Shown here in pieces: positions 3,742 through 54,790 of a stretch of DNA of 64,000 nt (positions are counted from its first letter, which is position 1; each line of letters starts with the position of its first letter). Position numbers and translations under genes: made by a program. The stretch covers positions 186,001-250,000 of the forward strand of contig NZ_QETA01000002.1 of NCBI RefSeq assembly GCF_003123725.1, written 5' to 3'. The notes below the pieces were generated by a model. The model was given only the letters and a program-made list of their open reading frames with translations. It ran no database searches and was not told the origin of the DNA. This stretch comes from Corticimicrobacter populi (GTDB lineage: Bacteria; Pseudomonadota; Gammaproteobacteria; Burkholderiales; Burkholderiaceae_B).

Positions 3742-5369
3742 GTCTGGCCCTGAAAATCGATCACCTGAGCCTGCGCCTGCCGCTGCAGGGTGACAGGCCT
3801 TATGCCATCGAGGGGCTGAGTCTGTCGATCCCGGTTGGCGGCACATTGTGCGTGGCAGGCGAGTCCGGATCGGGCAAGTCGGCCCTCGCCCTGGCTATCA
3901 TGGGGTTGCTGCCGCCGGGTATCCGTCCCGAACAGGGAACGATCGACGTCGCGGGCCATACCGTGCTGGCCGATGGACGCTATATCGCCGAGCGACAATT
4001 GCGCCAGTGGCGTGGCGCACGCATGACCATGGTATTCCAGGAGCCGATGACGGCCCTCAATCCCCTGATGACCTGCGGGCGTCAGGTCGATGAAGCACTG
4101 CGGCTGCATGGCCGATTGTCGCGCGCGGTCCGTCGGGCCCGTATCCTGGAGATGTTCGCTGCCGTGCAGCTTGATGCGCCCGAGCGGATTTTCCGTAGCT
4201 ATCCCCATCAGTTGTCGGGCGGGCAGCGCCAGCGCGTGGTGCTGTCCATGGCCATGATCCTGCGGCCGGCCCTGTTGATTTGTGACGAGCCGACGACGGC
4301 ACTGGACGTGACGACACAGGCCGAGATCCTGGCGCTGATTACCCGGCTGCAGCAGGAGCAGGGGACGACCGTACTGCTCATTACCCATGACCTGGGCGTA
4401 GCCGCCAGGATGGGGGGCGACCTGCTGGTCATGCATGAAGGGCAGGTTATCGAACAGGGCGCGGTGGCCGATGTGTTGGTGCGACCCGAGCATCCCTATA
4501 CCCGGCGGCTGCTGGCTGCCGTACCCTCCATGGTGCCACCGGACAGCCGGCCCGAACCCGAGACGCCGGTGATGCTGGCAGGACGCGGCGTGCGCAAGCG
4601 CTATCGGCATGGCAGTCTCTGGCGACAGACCGAGCAGGAGGTGCTGCGCAGCGTCGATCTGTCCGTGCGTGCAGGCGAGATCGTAGGCGTGGTCGGCGAG
4701 TCCGGTTCCGGCAAATCCACCCTGGCTCGTTGCCTGGTGCGTTTGGAGATGCCGAATGCCGGCAAGATCGAATGGCAGGGCTGGCCCGTCGAAGGCTTGC
4801 CGGAGCAACAATTGCGGGATGCCCGGCATCTGGTACAGATCATTTCCCAGGATCCCGGCCGCAGCCTCAATCCGCGCCGCCGGATTGGCGATACCCTGGC
4901 CGAGGGCGCGCTCAACCGTGGCATGCCTGCGGCCGAGGCGCAACGTCTGGCAAGGGGGCTGCTGGAGCAGGTGCAGTTGCCGCCCGATGCCCTGAATCGC
5001 TACCCGCATCAGTTTTCGGGCGGGCAGCGGCAACGCCTCGCGATTGCACGGGCCCTGGCCTGCCGGCCCAGGGTGCTGATTGCCGACGAGGCCGTATCGG
5101 CACTGGATGTCACGACACAGGCGCATATCGTGGCCCTGCTGCGTGACTTACAATCGCGGCTCGATCTGGGGATCGTGTTCATCACGCATGATCTGCGTGT
5201 GGCGGCCCAGCTTTGCGATCGCGTCCTGGTGCTGCGGCGTGGCCGGGTGGTCGAGCAGGGACGTACGGCCGCAGTATTCGGCCAGCCCCGGCATGAATAT
5301 ACCCGTAGCCTGTTGGCGGCAGCACCTGTGTTGCCGATGCCGGCACTCGATCCTGAATTGCAAACCTGA
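3738..5369 (+). CDS. Fused double ATPase of peptide-type ABC importer (DppD-DppF in one chain)
   Basis: Energises the importer by ATP hydrolysis. The 543-residue chain contains two complete nucleotide-binding domains, like YejF or GsiA. In domain 1, Walker A GESGSGKS is at residues 41-48, with signature LSGGQRQR and Walker [10 protein letters not shown]. In domain 2, Walker A GESGSGKS is at 320-327, with signature FSGGQRQR and Walker [10 protein letters not shown], where DEAVS replaces the usual DEPTS. The start overlaps the permease stop (ATGA). One fused protein replaces the two separate ATPases of classical Dpp/Opp systems. The operon ends here; the next gene starts 14 nt later but is unrelated. 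Confidence 0.93.
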
Positions 5370-5383
5370 GCCGGACTGTCGAC

Positions 5384-5956
5384 GTGGAAGCCTATCTCTC
5401 GAATCTCATCAATGACGTACTGGCGTTCCTGTCGTTGCCGGAAATCGGGCTGAGCGCGATCTTTACCGTCAGCCTGGTGTCGGCGACCCTGTTGCCGCTG
5501 GGATCGGAGCCCGCCGTGTTCGGCTACCTGAAACTGGCACCGGATATGTTCTGGCCGGCCGTGGTGGTTGCCACGGCGGGAAATACGATCGGCGGTGCCA
5601 TCAGCTATGCGATGGGACTCTGGGCACGCCTGGCCGTGCTGCGCTGGAAACGTCGACGGCAGCAGCAGATGCTGGCCGAACGGGCCGGCGATGCCGGTGA
5701 TCTCACGGTTGATGCCCGTCCCACGCGGCGCTTGCGTGGCAAGTGGGAACAGCGGGCCCGCCAGTGGCTGCGGCGCATGGGGCCGCCGGCACTGTTGTTG
5801 TCATGGCTGCCGGGCGTGGGCGATCCGCTGTGCGCGGTGGCCGGCTGGCTGCGGTTGTCGTTCTGGCCCTGCGTCATGTATATGGCCATTGGCAAATTTG
5901 CCCGCTATGTGATCATGACGGCCGTTCTGCTGTGGGTCTGGCCCAACGGGGTTTGA
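5384..5956 (+). CDS. YqaA/DedA-like inner-membrane protein with a cytoplasmic insertion
   Basis: A 190-residue membrane protein read from GTG 5384. The N-terminal part (SATLLPLGSEPAVFGYL, then VVVATAGNTIGGAISYAMG) and the C-terminal part (PPALLLSWLPGVGDPLCAVAG) match the YqaA/SNARE-associated family of unknown or transport-related function. Between them is a strongly basic stretch of about 50 residues (RWKRRRQQQ, RRLRGKWEQRARQW) absent from the roughly 140-residue short YqaA proteins, so this copy has an enlarged cytoplasmic loop. It follows the ABC operon by 14 nt and could be read through from it, though a functional link is not evident. Confidence 0.75.
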   Translation: MEAYLSNLINDVLAFLSLPEIGLSAIFTVSLVSATLLPLGSEPAVFGYLKLAPDMFWPAVVVATAGNTIGGAISYAMGLWARLAVLRWKRRRQQQMLAERAGDAGDLTVDARPTRRLRGKWEQRARQWLRRMGPPALLLSWLPGVGDPLCAVAGWLRLSFWPCVMYMAIGKFARYVIMTAVLLWVWPNGV

Positions 5957-5973
5957 TCCGGACGTATGCAGCG

Positions 5974-6351
5974 ATGAAAAATGGCTTCCGCTTTGATGCG
6001 CTTGCGAACAAGACGTTCTTCACGGAACCGGGCAAGAGCGATGTTTTCTTCGGGCTGCAGGCACGGATCAAAAATAGCGCAAGCGTGACCCCGATTTCAA
6101 CCCTTCAGGAGTTGACTGCGGCCTTGCGCCATGAACGCTATTACATTGCCCACAATATGGTGATGCACAAGGGCAAGACGGCTGTTTTCATGGGCGAAAT
6201 GGTGGAGGTCGCCAGCGCGGATCTTGTCGAGTTTTTGCAAGGCTCTATGGAAGGGGGTGACCTGAGGGATTTTCTTGTGGCACCCGCAGACAGCGGCTAC
6301 CCTGATCATGTGATCACTGTAGGAGAAGACGGAAGCTATCTGTACAGGTGA
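5974..6351 (+). CDS. Unrecognised small protein, 125 aa
   Basis: I do not recognise this protein. It starts at ATG 5974, 17 nt after the YqaA-like gene, and has no membrane segment or signal. The sequence opens MKNGFRFDALANKTFF and ends EDGSYLYR; it is a compact acidic/basic mix consistent with a soluble alpha/beta protein. Codon use looks less GC-biased than in flanking genes. It converges on the next gene (6413-7084) with a 61-nt gap. The neighbourhood of small soluble orphans with a SMI1/KNR4-like protein suggests an immunity-type role, but that is inference. Confidence 0.55.
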   Translation: MKNGFRFDALANKTFFTEPGKSDVFFGLQARIKNSASVTPISTLQELTAALRHERYYIAHNMVMHKGKTAVFMGEMVEVASADLVEFLQGSMEGGDLRDFLVAPADSGYPDHVITVGEDGSYLYR

Positions 6352-6412
6352 TGGTGCAGCCAGGCCATGACGTGCTTTTCGTGCTTCCGGATGAATGGGT
6401 TTTCTGCGGTGC

Positions 6413-7084
6413 CTAATCCTGTGCGATCAGATACTCGAAGAAAATTTCAGCTTCTTTTTTGTGCCGAGTGACGTTCAGGATTTCCGCTTGTTTTTCCAGA
6501 AGCTGGTGCATGCTCGCACTATTTTTTTTCAAAACAACCAGTGCGGGATACTGGGTGTTTGCAATGATGGATGATTCGCTGGCTGCCCCTGGGAACCAGC
6601 CCAATGCATATGTGACGCTTTGGGCAAGTTGTTCCCGCCAATTGCTGATGTCGTCGATATGGTCGAATGCACACAGCCAGATCGAGAATCTGTTCCTGAA
6701 GCTTGCCAGTGATTCATGTTCTTCCTTGAAAATCCGCCAGTCGGTCAGACCTTGAATAGTGTGGTTGCTGAGCCGGGTCTTGATGGCGCTTTTGATATCC
6801 TTTTCGCGCCAGTTAGGCGGGTAAATGTAGCGCTCATCCCGTAGCGTCAGTTCCAGTACGCGGTTTACGGCTGTCATGAGCGTTTTGCTCAATAGGTTCA
6901 GACGCAGACTGAAGGAAAAATGCCCTTTCTGCCGTGAGATTGAGATTTCGTATTGAAAAGTATGACCGTGAAGATCGTTTGATTCGAAGTGATAGGGGGC
7001 TTTCAGCCTGAAATCATGGTCTTTGAAAAGTTGGTGTATGGATTCTGTGGCTGTTTGTGCGATCAGCTTCGGATCGGTGGACAT
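6413..7084 (-). CDS. Unrecognised soluble protein, 223 aa, low GC
   Basis: A hypothetical protein (begins MSTDPKLIAQTATES) that I cannot place in a named family. It is predicted soluble, with alternating beta segments (TFQYEISISRQKGHFSF) and a central amphipathic helix. Base composition is clearly lower in GC than the flanking phoR or ABC genes, a sign of separate origin. It is divergent from the SMI1/KNR4-like gene, with 29 nt between the start codons, so the two share a very short promoter region. The C-terminal segment HKKEAEIFFEYLIAQD has no catalytic motif I can name. Confidence 0.6.
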   Translation of the reverse strand: MSTDPKLIAQTATESIHQLFKDHDFRLKAPYHFESNDLHGHTFQYEISISRQKGHFSFSLRLNLLSKTLMTAVNRVLELTLRDERYIYPPNWREKDIKSAIKTRLSNHTIQGLTDWRIFKEEHESLASFRNRFSIWLCAFDHIDDISNWREQLAQSVTYALGWFPGAASESSIIANTQYPALVVLKKNSASMHQLLEKQAEILNVTRHKKEAEIFFEYLIAQD

Positions 7085-7113
7085 TGTTTTGGTGATTCTT
7101 TTGGGGAGCGGAG

Positions 7114-7473
7114 ATGACGCTGAGTGTTCTGCAGCATGTGGCTGATCTTGAAACTGAAATTCACGCCAAACTGCCTGAAAATTATAGAAGGTTCCTGGTC
7201 GAGGACGTCGGAGAAGCGGACGCTTGCGATGTCCGGATAGGCGCAGATGAGTTCGCCAGTTTTTATGGCGCGCATGTCCTGGGCGAAAGGAACCAGACCT
7301 ATGACGTCCAGAGCGCGAGTCCCGGCTTTCTGATGATAGGCCAGGATGGTGACCTGGGCTATTTCATCCATACGGAACGCGGGAGTGACGTGATCTACAG
7401 CCAGGATCTCGGTGCGCTGGGTATCCTGGAAATGGATGTGGTGGCTGCGGATATCTACGACTTGGCGGGGTGA
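7114..7473 (+). CDS. SMI1/KNR4 (SUKH)-family protein, 119 aa
   Basis: Small soluble protein with the start typical of SMI1/KNR4 domains: an N-terminal helix followed by LPENYRRFL, a GADEF segment and the later phrase IGQDGDLGYFIHT, the usual glycine-rich strand. SUKH proteins in bacteria are commonly immunity proteins for secreted polymorphic toxins (family knowledge). GGGGAG sits just upstream of ATG 7114. The 3' end overlaps the convergent phoR gene by 19 nt. No toxin gene is visible in the window, so this may be an orphan immunity gene. Confidence 0.72.
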   Translation: MTLSVLQHVADLETEIHAKLPENYRRFLVEDVGEADACDVRIGADEFASFYGAHVLGERNQTYDVQSASPGFLMIGQDGDLGYFIHTERGSDVIYSQDLGALGILEMDVVAADIYDLAG

Positions 7474-8771
7474 GGATTTTTCTCGCCGACGCGTTCTGGC
7501 GGAAATACCAGGGCAAAGGTGCTGCCCTGGCCTAGCACGCTGGTGATTTCCAGTTCTGCATCATGGCGCATGGCAATGTGCTTGGTGATGGCCAGTCCCA
7601 GGCCGGTACCGCCGGCCGCACGTGAACGGCTGCGGTCGACGCGGTAGAAGCGCTCTGTCAGGCGATCGATGTGGTGTGCGGCGATGCCGATGCCGGTGTC
7701 AGTGACGACGTAGCGTGCGCCACCGTCTGGCGTGGCCTCGAAGGTGACACTGATGGTGCCGCCTTCGGGGGTGTAGCGGACGGCATTGGTGAGCAGGTTC
7801 GAGACCGCCGAAGCCAGCTCGGTTTCACTGCCGCGAATCTGCAGATCAGGATCAATATGCCAGGAAAAGACATGCTTGCCGGCCGACAGGCTTTCAACCT
7901 GTTGGCGTGGCGTGGCCAGCAGGCTGTCGCAGCGGATCGCTTGACCTTCCTGGCTGGGTGCCGATTCGAGTGTGGACAGCGTCAGCAGGTCGGCGACCAG
8001 TGCCTGCATGACCTGCCCCTGGTCGTACATGAGCGTCATGTAGTGCGTTCGCTGTTCCGCACTCAATGCATCGGCCGGCATGTCGCGCAGGGTTTCCAGA
8101 AAACCGACCAGAACGGTGAGCGGGGTGCGCAGCTCGTGCGAGACATTGGCAACGAAGTCGCGGCGGGTGGTTTCGAGCCGTTCGAGTTGGGTTACGTCGC
8201 GGGTGATCAGCAGGCGCTGGTCACGTCCGAACGTCGCCAGTTGCATCAGCAGTCGACGTTCCCGGTCGCGTAGATGGACACGCACCACCACAGGTTCGGG
8301 CCAGCGATCCTGGGCTGCGTATTCGATGAAACCGGGTGAGCGCAGCAGATTGCGCAGGTCTGCGCTTTGATCCATGGGCATGCGCAGACCCAGGTGGCGC
8401 TGCGCCGTGCGGTTGCACCAGTCGATATGAAAACCCCGATCCAGGGTGACGACGCCATCGGGCAGGGCCTGTGCCGCTGCCAGCATGCTTTGCATGGTGT
8501 CCTGGGCGGTTTCGTTTTCCAGCCGGCGTGCTTTGAGATAGCGGTAGAGCGGGGCGGTCAGGGCATCCCAGTCACCCAGCGCCGGTGGTGTGGCTTCGGG
8601 TGTGAATGTCCATTGCTGCAATTGCGCCAGTATGCGTGCCTGTCGGATCAGCAGCAGGGCGGGGATCAGCAGCGCCGTGGCAGCGGCGACCCAGGGAGTC
8701 AGCAGCCAGCCCAGAGCCGTCGCAAGGATGGCGGTGAACAATATCCAGGACAGCGTACGGGCGAGGGTCAT
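7455..8771 (-). CDS. phoR: Phosphate-regulon sensor histidine kinase PhoR
   Basis: Membrane sensor kinase for phosphate starvation that phosphorylates PhoB. The 438 residues comprise two N-terminal hydrophobic segments (SWILFTAILATALGWLL and WVAAATALLIPALLLI), a PAS domain (around 90-180, with VVTLDRGFHIDWCNRTAQ), a HisKA domain with HELRTPL near residue 210, and a HATPase domain with N box (SNLLTNAVRYTPEGG), DTGIGI and GTGLGL. This is the normal PhoR architecture. It lies 21 nt downstream of phoB, so the two form one operon. The 3' end overlaps the SMI1-like gene. Confidence 0.92.
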   Translation of the reverse strand: MTLARTLSWILFTAILATALGWLLTPWVAAATALLIPALLLIRQARILAQLQQWTFTPEATPPALGDWDALTAPLYRYLKARRLENETAQDTMQSMLAAAQALPDGVVTLDRGFHIDWCNRTAQRHLGLRMPMDQSADLRNLLRSPGFIEYAAQDRWPEPVVVRVHLRDRERRLLMQLATFGRDQRLLITRDVTQLERLETTRRDFVANVSHELRTPLTVLVGFLETLRDMPADALSAEQRTHYMTLMYDQGQVMQALVADLLTLSTLESAPSQEGQAIRCDSLLATPRQQVESLSAGKHVFSWHIDPDLQIRGSETELASAVSNLLTNAVRYTPEGGTISVTFEATPDGGARYVVTDTGIGIAAHHIDRLTERFYRVDRSRSRAAGGTGLGLAITKHIAMRHDAELEITSVLGQGSTFALVFPPERVGEKNPHPAKS

Positions 8772-47067: not shown

Positions 47068-47354
47068 TAAGGTAATAAAATGATACGATGACTGCTTACG
47101 GCCAATAGTAGACCTAGCCAAAAGCAGTCATCCAGGTTTCCAAGCAGTGGCACCGAAGACAACTAGCCTCACCAAGTGGAGGGTTCTACCGGCCAGAGAT
47201 GAATACCCGGAGGACTCTGGATTTCCCAGTTTGGTTTGCAGCCATGCTAGCCGGATGGAACCAACCCTCAACTATTTCGTCTTGCCAGTCCTTGCTGTGT
47301 CAAAAGCGCTTTCAGGCTATAAACTAAGGCCTCAGTCAGCCTGACGCCCCCCAA

Positions 47355-50300
47355 ATGCACACACTATTTCATGTAGATACAGCGGACATAAAAGCCCTGA
47401 ACGACGAGCAAGCGCGCGCACTGATCGCAAGATTGTGTCGGGCTGAGATTCGCAAGCACGGGGGCTCCGAGTCGGTCGTCACCTGGGGTGGCGATCAAAG
47501 AGCAAAAGATGGGGGGGGTGGACGTCAGGGTAGAGATAAATCCGCCACTGGGGATATCTGGCTATCTACCCAATGACAACACAGCCTTTCAGGTAAAGGC
47601 CGAGGTGTTCCCCCCCAGCAAGATACCTGGGGAAATGGTGCCCAAGGGAGTGCTAAGACAAGCAATACGCGACCTCGCTACGACCAAAGGAAGTTACGTT
47701 ATCGCTGCGACGCGAGACAATACCTCCGAGTCCGCTCTCGATCTACGACTCAATGCGATGAGAGATTGCTTGTCGGCCAACGGCCTCGGCTCCTCGCCAC
47801 ATGTTGGCTTTTATGATGCAAGAAAGATTGCAGACTGGGTCGAGCAACACCCAGCAATCGTAGCTTGGGTCAAACACCAGCTAGGAAAGCCACTTGTGGG
47901 TTGGCGCCCATACTCGGGCTGGGCCTACCAGGAGACGACCGTCGACTCAGAATATCTGCTCGATGATCGAGTCAAAGTGTTCACGCCTGACGCAGAGAAG
48001 GGCCTTAATGTCTCGGACACCATTGATCGCCTGCGCATCGACCTGTCGAAGGGGGCAAGCGTACGTATTGTCGGCTTATCTGGCGTCGGCAAAACTAGAT
48101 TAGTACAGGCACTCTTCGATCCGAGTGTAAAGGCGAATCAGGCTGCGCTGAGTACTGATGACGTGCTGTACACGGACCTTTCAGATGGACCTTCACCTCA
48201 ACCTTCAGCGATGCTCGAAGCGCTGATTGAAGACGGAAGTCAGTGTGTTCTCGTCGTGGACAATTGCGGAGCTGACACTCATCAGAAGCTCACCGAGCTG
48301 CTTAAGACGTCTGGCAACAAGATTGGCCTGGTTACTGTTGAGTACGACGTTCGAGATGACTTGCCAGACGCCACGAGGTGCTACCGTCTCGAAGGCTCCT
48401 CCGATGACGTAATCAGGCAGCTTCTTCAGCGGCGCTATTCGGTCCTATCAATCAGTGATGTTGATACCATCACGGCATTCTCAGACGGTAACGCTCGCAT
48501 TGCGTTTGCGTTGGCAGCGACGGTAACGACGACTGGTGAACTTGCACGGTTGCGAGACTCCGAGCTGTTCAAGCGCCTGTTTCATCAGAAGAATGTCGAG
48601 AATGAAGATCTCCTCAGATGCGCGGAAGCGGCTAGTATCCTGTACTCGTTCGACGGCGAGGACGATGGCCCTGGGTCAGAGTTCAACAAAATTGCCGCTG
48701 TTGCTGACGTTTCATTGATCACCCTACAGAGGAAAGTGATTGATCTACAGCGAAGAGGTCTCGTACAGGTGCGTGGCAAATGGCGTGCTGTTTTGCCACA
48801 CGCGATTGCCAATCGACTCGCGGCCCAGGCACTAGAAGCGATACCCAAATCGCAAATCGTGAATATCTTTGTCGACACCGCTACCGACCGTGTTGTCCGG
48901 TCGTTCTCGCGACGACTTGGTTACCTACATGAAAGCGCAAAAGCCGCCGAGCTTATACGGGACTGGCTCTCGCCATCCGGGCGTTTTGGAGACCTAACGG
49001 CTCTCAATGACATTGGCCATGAAATATTTCACAACATTGCACCTATATCTCCGAAGGTCGCCCTAGCGGCGATTGGACGGGCTGCCAATATCCCTAGCTT
49101 TCTTTCGGACGAGAACAGCAAGCGTGCTCAGTATGCGCATACGTTGAAAGCCATCGCGTTCGAAGAAGAACATTTCGATACCGCCGCCGATATTCTTGTC
49201 CGGTTCGCTTTGGCAGATCCCCAGGAAAATGGGGGGCGCGAATCTATTGTCGAGATTCTGAAATCTCTGTTTTTCTGCATGCTATCCGGGACGAATGCCT
49301 CTCCCAATCAAAGGTCAGATTTTGTCAGAAAATTGCTTGAATCCGGCGATGCCGAGAGAGAGCAGTTGGGGCTGTTGGCGCTCGACGCGGCGCTTGAGAC
49401 ATGGCATTTTACCTCCGTGAGTAGATTCGATTTCGGAGCTCGAAAGCGGAGCGAGGGATGGGCTCCGCTATCCCGCTCAGACGTTGACGCGTGGTTTATG
49501 CCATTCATCCGGATGGCACTCGGTATTGGTAAGCAGAAGTCCGACCTTGCTGAAAGTTGCAGATCTATTTTGGGTCGCCGTTTAAGAAGACTTTGGGTTG
49601 ACACGAATCTGAGGCCAGAAGTGTGTGCAGCCGTAAAAGAACTGGCTTCAGTCGTGAGCTGGCCTCAAGGTTGGTTTGGAGTCAAAAGCATCCTTCGCTT
49701 TGACTTGGATAAATGCGATGAGTCAATTCAGAACGAGCTGCGCGAGCTGGAGAATCTTCTCAAACCGAAGGCTATACCCGACATGATTCGAACTCGACTT
49801 CTAGAATCGAGTCAATTCGACCTAGATCTTGATGATGATGCAGATCTGCGCGCTGAAACGACTGGTGAGCGCATCTGCAGATCAAACAAGGCCGTGGAGG
49901 AGCTTGGGGAGGCTGCTGCCACCATTGAAGGTCTTCTCTTGGAGTTACTCCCGCAATTGATCTCAACCAAGTCAGTAGCCAGTGCATTTTATTTGGGGGT
50001 TGGGGTTGGAAAGCAGATTGCGGACCCGGGCTGGATTTTGGATGCAGCAAAGGAACATATCGCCACTGCCACGCCCGGAACAGTCGGTGTCTTGTTCCTT
50101 CGCGGCTTGCTCAACGGCTGGCATCACGCGTCTCCCGCTTCTGCCGAGGAGTTCCTCGACAGCGCGGTGAGTGATGCAATTTGGGTCAGGTGGATCATGG
50201 ACCTGCATTGCAGCATACCAATGAACCAAGCGGCTTACGCTCGAATCCACCAATCAATCAAGGCTGGAAATACTCCTGCTTGGCAATACTTCTATCTCGG

Positions 50301-51234
50301 GATGGGCAGACAAACCGACTCATTCTCTGTTGAAGAGATTGGTGAGTTGCTTTCTGCGATAACACTGCTGCCTGATGGCGGTGTCGTGTTTCTCGAAGTC
50401 CTTGCCATGGTCGTCCACTGCGCATCAGATCACGATGATGCGTATAAGGAGTCACTGGCGGAAACCTGCCTAAATCTTCTCGGCTCAGCCGAATGGGGAA
50501 AGGTTCTTGGGGATAGTGCCAATAGCGGTTACCGCCTTGAGAGCATATTGGAGTTTTCGCTGAAGCGATTAGCTTCTTCCGAAGCAGCGCTGGAGGTATT
50601 GAACGGTCTAGTTGCCTTTGCGCGCACGAAGGAATGTAGTTATTCCAATAGGGATGTAATCAAAGACGCCATCTCGCCGTTCCTCAGGCACATGCCGCGA
50701 CGAGCGCTTGACACGATCTATGTTCCCGGTGAAGAAGCTTACTGCCGTCAGATGTCGCCGGTGATTGGGCACCCTTACAGTGATCGGAAAGAGACAGCAC
50801 TCAGCGTAGTCCCAGTGGACGTATTGATCGATTGGTGTAATGCCTCGCCGTCTGATCGTTACGTGTTTGCGGCACGGAGCTGTAAGTTATTCGATACCCG
50901 AAGTCGAGCGAGTGAAAAGCATGTCAATATCGACTCTGTGGACGATTCTGAGTTGGTTATTTCGGAGGCCGCGCTCGCTGTGCTCGCTAATGCTCCTGAT
51001 AAGAGGGCTGTAATCGAGTGCTATTTAATGCGATTTACGCCTTCAGGCTGGTCCGGGTCTTTGGCCGAAATCCTGAGGAAACGGATTCCGCTTCTTGATG
51101 CTCTGAATCTCGGCAACGAGGAAGAACTGAAGCCAGTATTGGCGACAGCTAGAGCGAGCCTCGAACGAAGAATCGCAGCGGAAGAGCTTCGAGAGGACGA
51201 AGATGAGCGCGAGCGTACTGGGAGCTTCGAATAG
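47355..51234 (+). CDS. Frameshifted Avs-like nuclease-NTPase defence gene (1292 aa if repaired)
   Basis: Large antiphage-type gene broken into two frames at the G tract 47511-47518. Frame 1 from ATG 47355 encodes the natural N-terminus (LNDEQARALIARLCRAEIRKHGG ... VTWGGDQRAKDGG); with one G removed it continues as VDVRVEINPP, the established order of this family. The N-terminal domain looks like a PD-(D/E)xK nuclease (D of GGVDV, then FQVK). A STAND-type P-loop domain follows with Walker A GLSGVGKT (about residue 240 of the repaired protein) and Walker B CVLVVDNCG (about 300), then about 900 residues of helical-repeat sequence, plausibly the sensor. Without repair the frame starting at 47488 (GTG) or ATG 47509 gives an N-terminally shortened but otherwise intact product. 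It is low-GC and convergent with the next gene. Confidence 0.75.
47511..47518 (+). repeat. Poly-G tract (8 G) at the frame break
   Basis: Eight G follow GAT. Seven would keep the upstream and downstream reading frames joined (GAT GGG GGG GTG GAC). Homopolymers of this length are slippage-prone. The tract lies just before the candidate catalytic Asp of the nuclease domain. Confidence 0.8.
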
Positions 51235-51250
51235 GCTACCCCGACGCTTC

Positions 51251-51299
51251 CATTGGCCGGAAGCTGACACGAGCGGCGGGCAGTTACGGCCAGAAGCAG
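51251..51299. repeat. Short dispersed repeat, copy 1
   Basis: Shares CATNGNCGGAAG, AGCGGCGG and CGGCCAGAAGCAG in the same order with 52871-52919. It lies between two defence genes. Related CTGCTT/GGCC motifs occur in the left-edge inverted repeat. It may be integron or island-associated repeat DNA. Confidence 0.5.
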
Positions 51300-51340
51300 T
51301 CGGTCACCAAAATGAAAGCCGACGCCCAGCGCCCAGGGCT

Positions 51341-51383
51341 CCAACACTGGCCATAGAAATGCCGAAGACATGGCCAGTGTTGG
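51341..51383. repeat. 14-bp inverted repeat between convergent defence genes
   Basis: CCAACACTGGCCAT and ATGGCCAGTGTTGG pair perfectly around 15 nt. It lies 107 nt past the large gene and 64 nt before the end of the convergent one. It could be a bidirectional terminator stem without T tract or the inner stem of a degenerate attC; a core-like GTTAGAC is at 51403-51409. Confidence 0.55.
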
Positions 51384-51446
51384 CGTCCCCGTTGAATCAA
51401 CAGTTAGACGGTGCCTGCCCGAGTGATAGCGTCGCCAAATATATTG

Positions 51447-52562
51447 CTATTTTTCGCACTCTTTGATCCATTCTTTTAACTTAAGATAGTTGATAAGGCT
51501 CAACTGATGTTTGATTTGGTTGGAAAATTTTATAGCGTCTGGTGAAAAGTACGATGAGGTTACCATTATTCCTGCCGTGACTCTGTCGGTCAGTACCGTG
51601 CCCGCTAGTTCTCGAACCAGATTGACGCCAACCGGATTAGTGGGGGAGTGTTTCTTGCATTCGACATAAAATATGAAATCTCCAATGTCAGAATGATTTG
51701 CTATTATTAAATCCTTCCCCCCGTCGCGTGTTGCTTTGGTAAGGTCTACTTTGTACCCTCTCTTCTCCATGAGTTCAGCAACGAACTCCTCAAATTGACG
51801 AGGAGTTAATGTATGAATTGCGTTATGATCTCTTTGAATGGCCTCAAGCAGCCTTCCGTTTACTACTCTAATATCGCTTACGACTTGAATTATTTTTTGA
51901 GAATTCTTGTCTTGCTTGAACTCATGAAAAATGGACTTGTATTTTAGGTCTTCTGTTAGCGAGGTCAGGACGCTTTCGATAGTTGCGCCACGTCTGTTGA
52001 GACGGGTTGCAACTAATTTCATCAGATAGGGAATGCCTTTTGTGAAGTCTGCAACCTTTGCGATTTCAAAATCTGAGAGCATTGAATCAAACGCCGCCAG
52101 CAGGAACTGTTGCGATCCGGAATGAGGCAGCGCTTCAAGCCTGATGTGTGTGTTGGGTGAGAATTTTTCTATGAAATTTGCGAATGCGCTAACAAGGATG
52201 AATTGCTTGTCTGCATGATTTTGCAATAGCGAAGAAATGTACCCTGATCGCTCATAAGTAAAATCGTAGCTGAGATCCTCGATGACAACTAATTTTGTCG
52301 TGCTACCCACACTTGGGATAGCATGTGATGGTCGGCGTAGCGAAATTACCTCGGTATGCTCCGCAAGGGCGATGCCTTTTGTCTTTAAAAAGTGCATCCA
52401 TAGCAATGTTTTTCCAGTGCCATTAGGGCCAGTGATCGCTACTACTTTGCTACGATTTTGTAGTATTGAAGAGCTTAGTTTTTCGGATTCGGTCTCGCGC
52501 CCAATTTGAAATGGGTGATGCGAATGATCTTCTGCTGCACTAAAGACGAAATTGCTTTTCAT
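51447..52562 (-). CDS. P-loop ATPase fused to Mrr-type endonuclease
   Basis: A compact 371-residue defence-type protein with visibly low GC. The N-terminal part (about 20-250) is a P-loop/STAND-like ATPase: Walker A GPNGTGKT at 45-52, Walker B LVVIEDLS near 90, and helical segments after it. The C-terminal 110 residues are an Mrr-type restriction endonuclease (LTPRQFEEFVAELMEKRGYKV, then D of GGKD at about 282 and FYVECKK near 300, i.e. D and ExK). It is expected to cut DNA on an ATP-controlled trigger. The GTTAGAG core before the start (52572-52578, minus strand) hints at cassette origin. Confidence 0.8.
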   Translation of the reverse strand: MKSNFVFSAAEDHSHHPFQIGRETESEKLSSSILQNRSKVVAITGPNGTGKTLLWMHFLKTKGIALAEHTEVISLRRPSHAIPSVGSTTKLVVIEDLSYDFTYERSGYISSLLQNHADKQFILVSAFANFIEKFSPNTHIRLEALPHSGSQQFLLAAFDSMLSDFEIAKVADFTKGIPYLMKLVATRLNRRGATIESVLTSLTEDLKYKSIFHEFKQDKNSQKIIQVVSDIRVVNGRLLEAIQRDHNAIHTLTPRQFEEFVAELMEKRGYKVDLTKATRDGGKDLIIANHSDIGDFIFYVECKKHSPTNPVGVNLVRELAGTVLTDRVTAGIMVTSSYFSPDAIKFSNQIKHQLSLINYLKLKEWIKECEK

Positions 52563-52965
52563 TTTTTATTTCTCTAACAACTGGGCTATGAATACGCCGT
52601 CTGACGTGGTGCAGACCGAAAATCTGTCGAATAACCTGGGCAATGGGAGATATTTCGGACACTGAATCCCCTCGGAACGGACTTACATCTAAGCTTGCCA
52701 GCAAGAGCCTTTTCTAACGTCAAAGTATAAGAATTCCGCGAGATCCGGCAGCATAAAGTCGGCAACCGTTGGCGTAGACCGTACTTGAGAGCGCCGACTG
52801 TTCGCTTAGGAGCGATCAGCCTATATTAAGTCAATGGCCGCTTTTTTGGGGGGGGGCAGCACTGGCGGCTCATGGTCGGAAGGCACCTATCACCAGCGGC
52901 GGCTCGCGGCCAGAAGCAGGCGGTGGTGGTTACTAGAAGCGGACGCTCAACGCTGGATCGAAAGG
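52563..52965. other. Gene-free stretch between two cassette-like defence genes
   Basis: There is no convincing gene. It holds a 9-G run (52848-52856), the second dispersed repeat (52871-52919), core-like CTCTAAC (52572-52578) and TTCTAAC (52712-52718) motifs, and GTTAGTC (52965-52971), which overlaps the stop of the next gene. No single attC of normal length can be drawn across it; it may be a decayed or composite site. Confidence 0.5.
52871..52919. repeat. Short dispersed repeat, copy 2
   Basis: Second copy of the element at 51251-51299: same three conserved blocks, slightly different spacing. Both copies lie in the same orientation, downstream of minus-strand defence genes. Confidence 0.5.
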
Positions 52966-53631
52966 TTAGTCATCACGTTTGCTATCGCCTGCAGAAAGTT
53001 TGACGGCTTCTTGCAAAGAGCTGTCCCAGGACGCGAGATCTTCAGTGATCTTCCTCGAGTGAACTGCGATGCGAGTGGCATCGTTCAGGTCATGAGCGAA
53101 CCCCGAAAGTGCGATCGCAGGCAGATGAGGTGCCTGCCGCGCCAGAAACGAAGTATGAATGCCGAAGAGAGATATTTGCCGCGTTAGAACGTCAAACTTA
53201 TAGGTAAATATCAGTTTTCCTCGTTTTGCATCAACGACAGCAGCTTCGCTCTCCCAATAACCATGCTCCTTCAAGTTGATGTCGAATGACCTACCCGTAA
53301 TGACCAATCCATCGAGGTCCTGTGAGAAGTGCTCGACCATATAGCGCCTTTCGCCAGAGTGTCCATCGAACCAGCCGACCCATGTGCCATGAACAAAATG
53401 TGGGCCCAAAACCAGCTTGGCCGCAGTAGTAGATCGCTCCATCACCCAGCGAACGCCGATCGTAAGAAGTCGATAGACACCGGCCGAAAGGACCAGCCCG
53501 CTTGCCGAAAGTGCTATTGGATTGTCCGCACCGAGGGCCGCTAGTCGCGGCGAGGCCCACGCCACCAATAAGAACATGAGCGACACAGTGAGACCGCACA
53601 GTAGTGCGTTGAACTTAGCTGCAGGTGACAT
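52966..53631 (-). CDS. Two-TM plus beta-rich protein, Cap15-like plan
   Basis: A 221-residue membrane protein. Two hydrophobic segments (ALLCGLTVSLMFLLVAWAS and NPIALSASGLVLSAGVYRLLTIG) are followed by a cytoplasmic beta-rich domain starting HGTWVGWFDG and including ITGRSFDINLKEHGYWESEAAVVDAKRGKLIFTYKFD (quoted as separate strands: ITGRSFDI, GYWESEAAVV, KLIFTYKFD). This is the layout of the S-2TM-beta (Cap15) effectors of CBASS, but no CD-NTase gene is present. The TAA stop overlaps a core-like GACTAAC, as in integron cassettes. Family assignment is tentative. Confidence 0.6.
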   Translation of the reverse strand: MSPAAKFNALLCGLTVSLMFLLVAWASPRLAALGADNPIALSASGLVLSAGVYRLLTIGVRWVMERSTTAAKLVLGPHFVHGTWVGWFDGHSGERRYMVEHFSQDLDGLVITGRSFDINLKEHGYWESEAAVVDAKRGKLIFTYKFDVLTRQISLFGIHTSFLARQAPHLPAIALSGFAHDLNDATRIAVHSRKITEDLASWDSSLQEAVKLSAGDSKRDD

Positions 53632-53646
53632 AGGTGGTCTTGTGAT

Positions 53647-53757
53647 GTCTAACGTTTGAGTTGAGCGGCAGACTCCGGTGGGACGCGCTTAGCCCAGAAT
53701 GAAATGAAGGCCAGGCGTGGCGGTGCCGGCACCTGCCGCTCGTACGATGGGTTAGGC
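53647..53757 (-). other. attC-like integron recombination site (111 bp)
   Basis: On the minus strand it runs from GCCTAAC to GTTAGAC. The inner arms GAGCGGCAG pair perfectly and lie 9 nt in from both cores, the R/L box arrangement of attC. The plus-strand end GTCTAACGTTTGAGTTGAGC closely resembles the aadA-type 59-base element as I remember it. It lies just after the TIR gene. Core complementarity with the upstream GTTAGGC at 54663-54669 defines a complete cassette carrying the TIR gene. Confidence 0.75.
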
Positions 53758-53763
53758 CTCACC

Positions 53764-54633
53764 TCACGGGCGTTGGTTCTTCGGCTTCCCGAGGACCTCA
53801 GTCATGTGTTGATATGTCTCAGCGATGACGTTTCCCGTGTTCACGAGGATGTCCCGACCGTTGTCCTCACCGATTCGGCGCACGCCAATCCGGACTTCAT
53901 AGGCCTCATCCCTTCCCGCCCCCTTCATCTCGAACTTATAGATCTTCTCTCGTTCATCAGCTAGGCGCGGCAGCAAGCCGCCTGCCTTATTGACTTTGTC
54001 GAGTAGGAGCTTAACGACGTGTAGTTTGGCCACCTCAACGCCTTCGGCCTCCTTGGTGCTCTCGAATGCGCGCGTAGCGGCGGGTGTTGCGAGAATCGCG
54101 ATATTCGTAAGGCAGGTGTGTGGTTCCTTGTTTGGGACTTGCACGTAGTTCAGGATGATCGTGACTCGGCCGTTCACATTGCCCCAGTCTATTGACCAGT
54201 CGGTGTGATATGTTGCCTCCTTGGTTCGGCCAAGCGAAGCACTAGTTACCTTTGCGATGCCCTCTGTAATTAATCTGAATCCGGCATCAAAGTCGGTGCG
54301 AAAGTCAGCAAACATCTTCCCGCGTGCGAATACCGGTACTGTGCACTCTTCGAGCATGACAGGCATGACTACAACCCGTTTCTCTTCTAGCTCTCGAAGC
54401 AACCCAGCCGAGAGCTCCTTCTTACACCACTCAGACTCGACAGATGCTTTCGACAATATGACAAGTAAAGCACTTGCGCCGTCTACTGCTTCTTGGACCT
54501 TATCCACAATCGAGTCACCGACTGACAATTCCCATCGGTCAAGCCAAACGTGGACATTGGTGCGGACGAGTTGCATCGCTAGGCGATCTACAAAATCTTT
54601 GTCTTTGTGCGAATAGCTGATGAATATTGGCAT
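53764..54633 (-). CDS. TIR-domain protein with uncharacterised C-terminal domain
   Basis: A 289-residue protein. Residues 1-130 form a TIR domain: FISYSHKDKDFVDRLA, HVWLDRWELSVGDSI, ALLVILSKASVESEWCKKEL. E73 in SEWCKKE is in the position of the catalytic glutamate of NAD-cleaving TIR proteins. The C-terminal 150 residues (WSIDWGNVNGRVTIILNYVQVP onward, ending in a long helix) are beta-rich and unrecognised, plausibly the sensor. It sits in an integron-type cassette, so it may be a stand-alone NAD-depleting abortive-infection gene. Confidence 0.82.
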   Translation of the reverse strand: MPIFISYSHKDKDFVDRLAMQLVRTNVHVWLDRWELSVGDSIVDKVQEAVDGASALLVILSKASVESEWCKKELSAGLLRELEEKRVVVMPVMLEECTVPVFARGKMFADFRTDFDAGFRLITEGIAKVTSASLGRTKEATYHTDWSIDWGNVNGRVTIILNYVQVPNKEPHTCLTNIAILATPAATRAFESTKEAEGVEVAKLHVVKLLLDKVNKAGGLLPRLADEREKIYKFEMKGAGRDEAYEVRIGVRRIGEDNGRDILVNTGNVIAETYQHMTEVLGKPKNQRP

Positions 54634-54662
54634 ACAACGCTGGTGTGGGTGGTGTTGGTGAG

Positions 54663-54669
54663 GCCTAAC
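54663..54669 (-). other. Core site (GTTAGGC) before the TIR gene; cassette boundary
   Basis: Read on the minus strand it is GTTAGGC, complementary to the GCCTAAC that opens the attC after the same gene. In a circularised cassette these ends would form the R' and R'' boxes. No opposing half-site is found to the right, so it could be the last attC remnant or an attI-like site. Confidence 0.5.
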
Positions 54670-54790
54670 GCAACATAGACCACACCGGGCCGCAGGCTAT
54701 ATCTGGCCCTTGCGGTCTAAATTGGTACGAAGAGAACGCGAAAGGGTCTTGCTGCCTAGCTTCACGGCGCGTTTTCTGTGCAGAATACAG

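What the first reader, a model, noticed from the sequence alone, without database searches (positions are those of the whole stretch)
47355..51234. Antiphage-type nuclease-NTPase broken or switched by an 8-G tract
The upstream frame (ATG 47355) and the main frame match one continuous protein if one of the eight G at 47511-47518 is removed; the join falls directly before the candidate catalytic Asp of the N-terminal nuclease domain. Options are a phase-variable switch (G tracts act so in Bordetella-type genomes), a decayed gene, programmed frameshifting, or a sequencing error. Internal starts at 47488 and 47509 could still yield an enzyme missing about 45-50 residues, so the tract might choose between two products. 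A phase-variable Avs-like system would be notable.
Basis: partly seen in the sequence, partly recalled or inferred. Interest (0 to 1): 0.85.

Follow-up and report, generated by a model that had tools for sequence, protein, structure and literature searches.

The report
Recently frame-broken phage-defence gene
A gene that helps bacteria resist viruses carries a run of eight G's that splits it into two reading frames; relatives elsewhere read straight through and lack the run, so this is most likely an ordinary recent break rather than a built-in switch.

Summary
In detail: an 8-G run at 47511-47518 puts an upstream frame (ATG 47355) and a main frame (up to 1248 aa, to 51234) out of register, and together they match one protein. 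The gene matches the PD-lambda-4_A family (PADLOC, E 3.7e-242), not Avs. In 24 of 24 relatives that align across the junction the two halves are in one frame, with at most five G's in a row there; the four closest (Pseudomonas, 86-92% identity) read GGAGGGG, one base shorter and A-interrupted. The uninterrupted run is private to this genome among the copies seen, so it is not a conserved switch. The rest of the gene has no stop and the same dN/dS (about 0.25) as the four intact relatives, so the break is recent or not real. This genome holds 45 G/C tracts of eight or more; 28 of the other 44 lie in frame inside Pfam-recognised genes (one purL-like gene has 11). Best reading: recent slippage inactivation of a horizontally acquired defence gene (0.62). 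Assembly error (0.2) and a lineage-specific phase switch (0.12) stay open; only reads or further isolates decide. Internal starts would give a protein lacking the conserved N-terminus.

The parts
47355..47576 (+). upstream frame: encodes the conserved first 52 residues of the family (by inference the first helix and strand of a nuclease-like domain), then runs on out of register after the tract to a stop
47511..47518 (+). 8-G tract where the frames part; the four closest relatives read GGAGGGG here
47488..51234 (+). main frame of the PD-lambda-4_A-type protein: GGVDV...FQVK motif, P-loop GLSGVGKT, long C-terminal part ending in SFE
47610..47616 (+). 7-C tract in the same gene, in frame; also seven C in relatives L003 and L004
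47117..51269 (+). about 4.15 kb single-gene unit shared with four Pseudomonas loci; similarity stops sharply at both ends
51447..52562 (-). neighbour: NTPase-like part plus Mrr-type restriction endonuclease domain
53764..54633 (-). neighbour: TIR-domain protein in the same low-GC stretch

Best explanation
The locus is a PD-lambda-4_A-type anti-phage gene acquired horizontally as a single-gene unit. In this lineage a silent A-to-G change joined two G runs into one, and a slippage event then lengthened the run and put the first 52 codons out of frame. The gene is thus a recent, probably inactive, frameshift allele. Shown: the tract, the two frames, relatives that read through, absence of the tract in them, absence of other stops, a dN/dS like that of intact relatives. 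Inferred: the order of the two changes, that the extra base is real in the organism, and loss of function.
For: The four closest relatives all read GGAGGGG and are single ORFs. 24 of 24 relatives aligning across the junction are in one frame there; the longest G run there is five, in L075. dN/dS of the window copy against the four relatives is 0.247-0.262, among the relatives 0.183-0.267; private codon changes 31 silent / 20 replacing, within the spread of the others; one single-codon gap. Copies broken elsewhere exist: L068 is in two frames further downstream and G031 is a partial copy in three frames, so loss of this gene is not unusual. Of the other 44 G/C>=8 tracts in this genome, 28 lie in frame within or between Pfam domains of one ORF, three at gene boundaries, and none was shown to break a gene.
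Against: No read data and no second isolate: the genus holds only this genome in the collection. A gene with no other lesion is also what an assembly error or a switch caught OFF would show. The tract control has limits: 13 of the 44 tracts stayed undetermined, and most ORFs scanned were chosen because they were open across the tract. Loss of function is inferred, not measured.
Confidence: 0.62

Rival explanations
1. Sequencing or assembly error: the true tract keeps the frame and the gene is intact, like its close relatives.
For: The gene looks under normal constraint with no other stop; homopolymers are where such errors fall (general knowledge); the genome is a 17-contig draft.
Against: 28 of 44 other tracts of 8 to 11 G/C in this assembly lie in frame in Pfam-recognised genes, and none was shown to break one; 13 remain undetermined. 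The A-to-G change must be real in any case unless two errors fell together.
Confidence: 0.2
2. Lineage-specific phase-variable switch: slippage in the G tract turns the defence gene off and on.
For: An 8-G coding tract can slip, and phase-variable restriction-modification genes are known (recalled; a listing shows PMC6789123 using 'phase variation' and 'poly-g', text not read). The absence of other lesions fits a gene that is often ON.
Against: No relative seen has the tract; 45 such tracts exist in the genome, at least 28 in conserved genes, so this one is not special; no length variants could be sought.
Confidence: 0.12
3. An internal start (47488 or 47509) makes a functional shortened enzyme, the tract choosing between two products.
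For: The main frame is open from GTG 47488 and keeps the conserved Asp, QxK and P-loop. ATG 47509 follows a purine-rich stretch, and the family start at 47355 has no better ribosome-binding site by eye, so the start context does not exclude it.
Against: All 24 aligned relatives keep an N-terminus of about 50 residues, with nearly invariant L15, L23, L27, A30, G46, A50 and D52 in the 18-row alignment; the lost part would hold the first helix and strand of the nuclease-like core (inferred from the motif pattern).
Confidence: 0.03
4. Programmed ribosomal or transcriptional frameshifting on the G run makes the full protein.
For: A slippery G run lies at the join.
Against: No aligned relative needs a shift (24 of 24 in one frame); the tract is not conserved.
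Confidence: 0.03

Closest known systems
PD-lambda-4 anti-phage system (PADLOC PD-Lambda-4_A; PD- systems of Vassallo et al. 2022, PMC9519451, passages seen)
   Same: Main frame matches profile PDLC03991 over 52-1280 of 1283, E 3.7e-242; a P-loop is present, as a review table lists for PD-lambda-4 (passage of PMC10952713).
   Different: Here the first 52 codons are out of frame. The review table does not list PD-lambda-4 in its PD(D/E)XK row, whereas alignment A2 shows a conserved D...QxK pattern at the N-terminus.
Avs (AVAST) STAND NTPases
   Same: Recalled architecture: N-terminal effector such as a nuclease, central NTPase, long C-terminal sensor; similar in outline. A weak match to the plant NLR Roq1 at the NTPase (E 0.027) would fit a STAND-type NTPase.
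   Different: No AVAST model hit up to E 1; no chain named Avs among the 11 PDB matches up to E 1.
Phase-variable restriction-modification genes with homopolymer tracts (recalled)
   Same: A G tract inside the coding region of a defence gene.
   Different: There the tracts vary between strains (recalled); here no relative seen carries the tract and no length variants are known.

Membership tests
PD-lambda-4_A | near full-length match to the family profile | tested here: met
   (52-1280/1283 by the main frame alone); intact relatives L004 and L005 from position 3
PD-lambda-4_A | P-loop NTPase motif | tested here: met
   GLSGVGKT; nearly invariant G240, S242, G243, G245, K246 in A2
PD-lambda-4_A | one intact open reading frame | tested here: not met
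   frames part at 47511-47518; so a broken member as assembled
PD-lambda-4_A | partner gene, if the system needs one | tested here: inconclusive
   the shared unit in five loci holds one gene; five neighbours of plasmid relatives gave no PD-Lambda-4 hit; whether a partner is required was not seen in the passages read
PD-lambda-4_A | anti-phage activity | not testable with these tools
   needs an experiment
Avs (AVAST) | match to AVAST models | tested here: not met
   PADLOC scan of the main frame up to E 1 shows only PD-Lambda-4_A strongly; that the library holds AVAST models is recalled
Avs (AVAST) | STAND NTPase domain | tested here: inconclusive
   AAA_16 in 10 of 18 rows (best E 1.6e-4) and nSTAND6 in 1 of 18 (E 0.006); weak PDB match to the NLR Roq1, E 0.027
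Avs (AVAST) | fold of nuclease, STAND and sensor repeats | tested here: inconclusive
   model of L004 residues 1-600 too poor, mean pLDDT 35.9; no fold search made
phase-variable contingency locus | repeat tract kept in relatives | tested here: not met
   0 of 24 have six or more G at the junction
phase-variable contingency locus | tract unusual for the genome | tested here: not met
   45 distinct tracts of eight or more, at least 28 of the other 44 in frame in Pfam-recognised genes
phase-variable contingency locus | length variants between cells or isolates | not testable with these tools
   no reads; single genome in the genus

The most novel reading that the evidence does not exclude
A silent change in this lineage has just created a contingency tract in an NTPase-nuclease-like defence gene of the PD-lambda-4 family, so that cells switch this defence off and on by slippage: the birth of a phase-variable defence system.
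Probability: 0.12. Interest if true: 0.6.

Novelty: new member of a known kind. Interest (0 to 1): 0.22.

Why it matters
It shows how a homopolymer can suggest a switch that comparison does not bear out: relatives read straight through with no tract, and the genome holds dozens of equal tracts, many in conserved genes. If reads nevertheless showed mixed tract lengths, it would be a case of an NTPase-nuclease-like defence gene becoming phase-variable. The alignment also points to a conserved nuclease-like N-terminus (D...QxK) in the PD-lambda-4 family, which could be tested by mutation.

Tried and rejected
Avs membership: PADLOC and a PDB profile search with 18 rows (11 matches up to E 1, best 0.013: septins, the plant NLR Roq1, a Clp subunit, a phosphoprotein) gave no Avs; rejected on sequence, while a STAND-type NTPase stays possible. 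Pfam gave no nuclease domain for any of 18 rows up to E 0.01 (two of the 18 are the window's own pieces), so the nuclease reading rests on the D...QxK pattern alone. Viral contigs, phages and plasmid DNA gave no match; plasmids by protein gave 43 records, all under 60% identity, of which nine were fetched.

Tract control: of 45 tracts one is the tract in question. Of the other 44, 28 have in one frame a Pfam match across the tract or matches on both sides (21, one of them, L057, only marginally; 7: L043, L050, both of L058, L062, one of L048, L032). Three lie at gene boundaries: L052 (end of an FtsW gene whose domain is complete, start of a glycosyltransferase 28 gene), L053 and L065. Thirteen are undetermined: one-sided match L048 (second tract), L051, L054, L059, L060, L061, L067; two stretches of which one not shown L018, L046; no match or not scanned L023, L038, L041, L063. 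A first version of this count covered only ORFs picked as open across the tract; some searches were added to cover the rest, but the pick still favours open frames. L052 was first taken for a second G-tract break. Codon scoring of tract flanks was too weak to use.

Literature: the searches were seen as listings (searches showed 20 of 27, 110 and 23 papers); passages were seen of PMC10952713, PMC9519451, PMC13190303 and PMC13236601. No title listed was on a phase-variable PD-lambda-4; that is not proof of absence from print.

Full report
Observation. The window has eight G at 47511-47518. The frame from ATG 47355 encodes 52 residues up to the tract (MHTLFHVDT...GGDQRAKD), then leaves register and ends at TGA 47574-47576 (read). 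The main frame starts at GTG 47488 at the earliest and runs to 51234. Given as separate rows, both fall end to end on intact relatives in alignment A2.

What it is. PADLOC gives PD-Lambda-4_A at E 3.7e-242 for the main frame, profile positions 52-1280 of 1283; intact relatives L004 and L005 start at position 3, so the missing start is the upstream frame. No AVAST hit appears up to E 1. A PDB profile search gives 11 weak matches (best E 0.013: septins, the plant NLR Roq1 at E 0.027, a Clp subunit, a phosphoprotein) and none named Avs; the Roq1 match would fit a STAND-type NTPase but is too weak to count on. Alignment A2 (18 rows, two of them the window's own pieces) shows nearly invariant D56, Q79 and K81 (GGVDV...FQVK) near the N-terminus and a P-loop (GLSGVGKT). 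The nuclease reading rests on this motif pattern, since Pfam names no nuclease domain in any of the 18 rows and the fold failed.

Comparison. The closest relatives are in four Pseudomonas genomes, 86-92% identical. All four read GATGGAGGGGTGGAC or GATGGAGGGGTGGAT where the window reads GATGGGGGGGGTGGAC, and each is one ORF. I examined 27 other copies: all hits (4), the five other genomes (200 genomes of the family), the four (369 of the class, only matches to E 1e-100), the five (38 genomes, to E 1e-100), and nine of 43 plasmid records. Of these, 24 align across the junction and all 24 are in one frame there; the longest G run at the junction is five, in L075. L011 and L073 do not align there, and the G031 copy lacks the N-terminus and lies in three frames. 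Two of the 24 are distant: L009 (21% identity) and L010 (a 218-aa ORF). L068 reads through the junction but changes frame further on, not at a G tract.

Age and constraint. Against the four relatives the main frame has dN/dS 0.247-0.262; among the relatives it is 0.183-0.267. Private codon changes in the window copy are 31 silent and 20 replacing (others: 21/18, 35/15, 37/28, 44/31). There is one single-codon gap, and the main frame has no stop. So the gene was under normal constraint until recently, or still is.

Is the tract special here? A search of the window's own genome gave 59 hits to eight G, 45 distinct tracts after merging. Of the 44 other tracts, 28 lie in one frame within a Pfam domain or between Pfam domains of one ORF, among them DnaG, DNA ligase, IF-2, an FGAR-amidotransferase (purL-like, 11 C), a PheT-type synthetase, chorismate synthase, serine hydroxymethyltransferase and signal peptidase II (named after their Pfam matches). 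Three are at gene boundaries and 13 are undetermined; none was shown to break a gene. The control favours open frames, as most ORFs were picked for spanning the tract. It still shows that runs of this length are common in coding sequence here, are often correctly assembled, and do not by themselves mark a switch.

Origin. DNA similarity to the four Pseudomonas loci covers about 47117-51269 and stops sharply at both ends. The gene has 52.9% GC and the stretch 47100-54700 51.8%, against 62.2% to the left and 65.3% to the right. A motif GGCCANAAGCAGTC (up to two mismatches) lies near both ends in the window and near the upstream end in L002 and L003, but not near the ends in L004 and L005. A longer form of it has its only exact match in the window's genome beside this gene; matches with two or three mismatches elsewhere are no more frequent than the reversed control (10 against 36), so no claim is made on how the unit moves. 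The gene came in horizontally, in a stretch that also holds an Mrr-NTPase and a TIR gene.

Verdict. The most economical account is a silent A-to-G change that fused two G runs, followed by a slip: a recent frameshift allele, probably inactive. An assembly error cannot be excluded without reads, nor can a young switch; the genus has a single genome in the collection. Internal starts would drop an N-terminus kept in all 24 aligned relatives and are unlikely to give a working nuclease-like domain, though the start context alone does not exclude them.

Noticed in passing
L034 (G000:C3:15706-15716): An 11-C/G tract lies in frame inside a purL-like gene (Pfam FGAR-AT domains on both sides), longer than the one in question.
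   Followed up: partly
L054 (G000:C12:201227-201237): An 11-G tract near the 5' end of, or just upstream of, a solute-binding-protein gene; perhaps a better candidate for slippage effects than the finding.
   Followed up: partly
window 47117-51269; L002-L005 about 4613-8764: Single-gene unit of about 4.15 kb with sharp ends in five loci; how it moves is unknown.
   Followed up: partly
window 51341-51383: Inverted repeat CCAACACTGGCCAT...ATGGCCAGTGTTGG downstream of the gene.
   Followed up: no
window 51447-54633: Three minus-strand genes: NTPase-like with Mrr domain, an unknown 221-aa protein without Pfam or PADLOC match, and a TIR-domain protein; candidate defence genes.
   Followed up: partly
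L068 (Ensifer adhaerens plasmid p-2) and G031 (L008, L012, L013): Other copies of this gene that are in more than one frame, away from G tracts.
   Followed up: partly
own genome: Hits to eight G are unequal between strands as assembled, 41 forward to 18 reverse, and grouped by contig.
   Followed up: no
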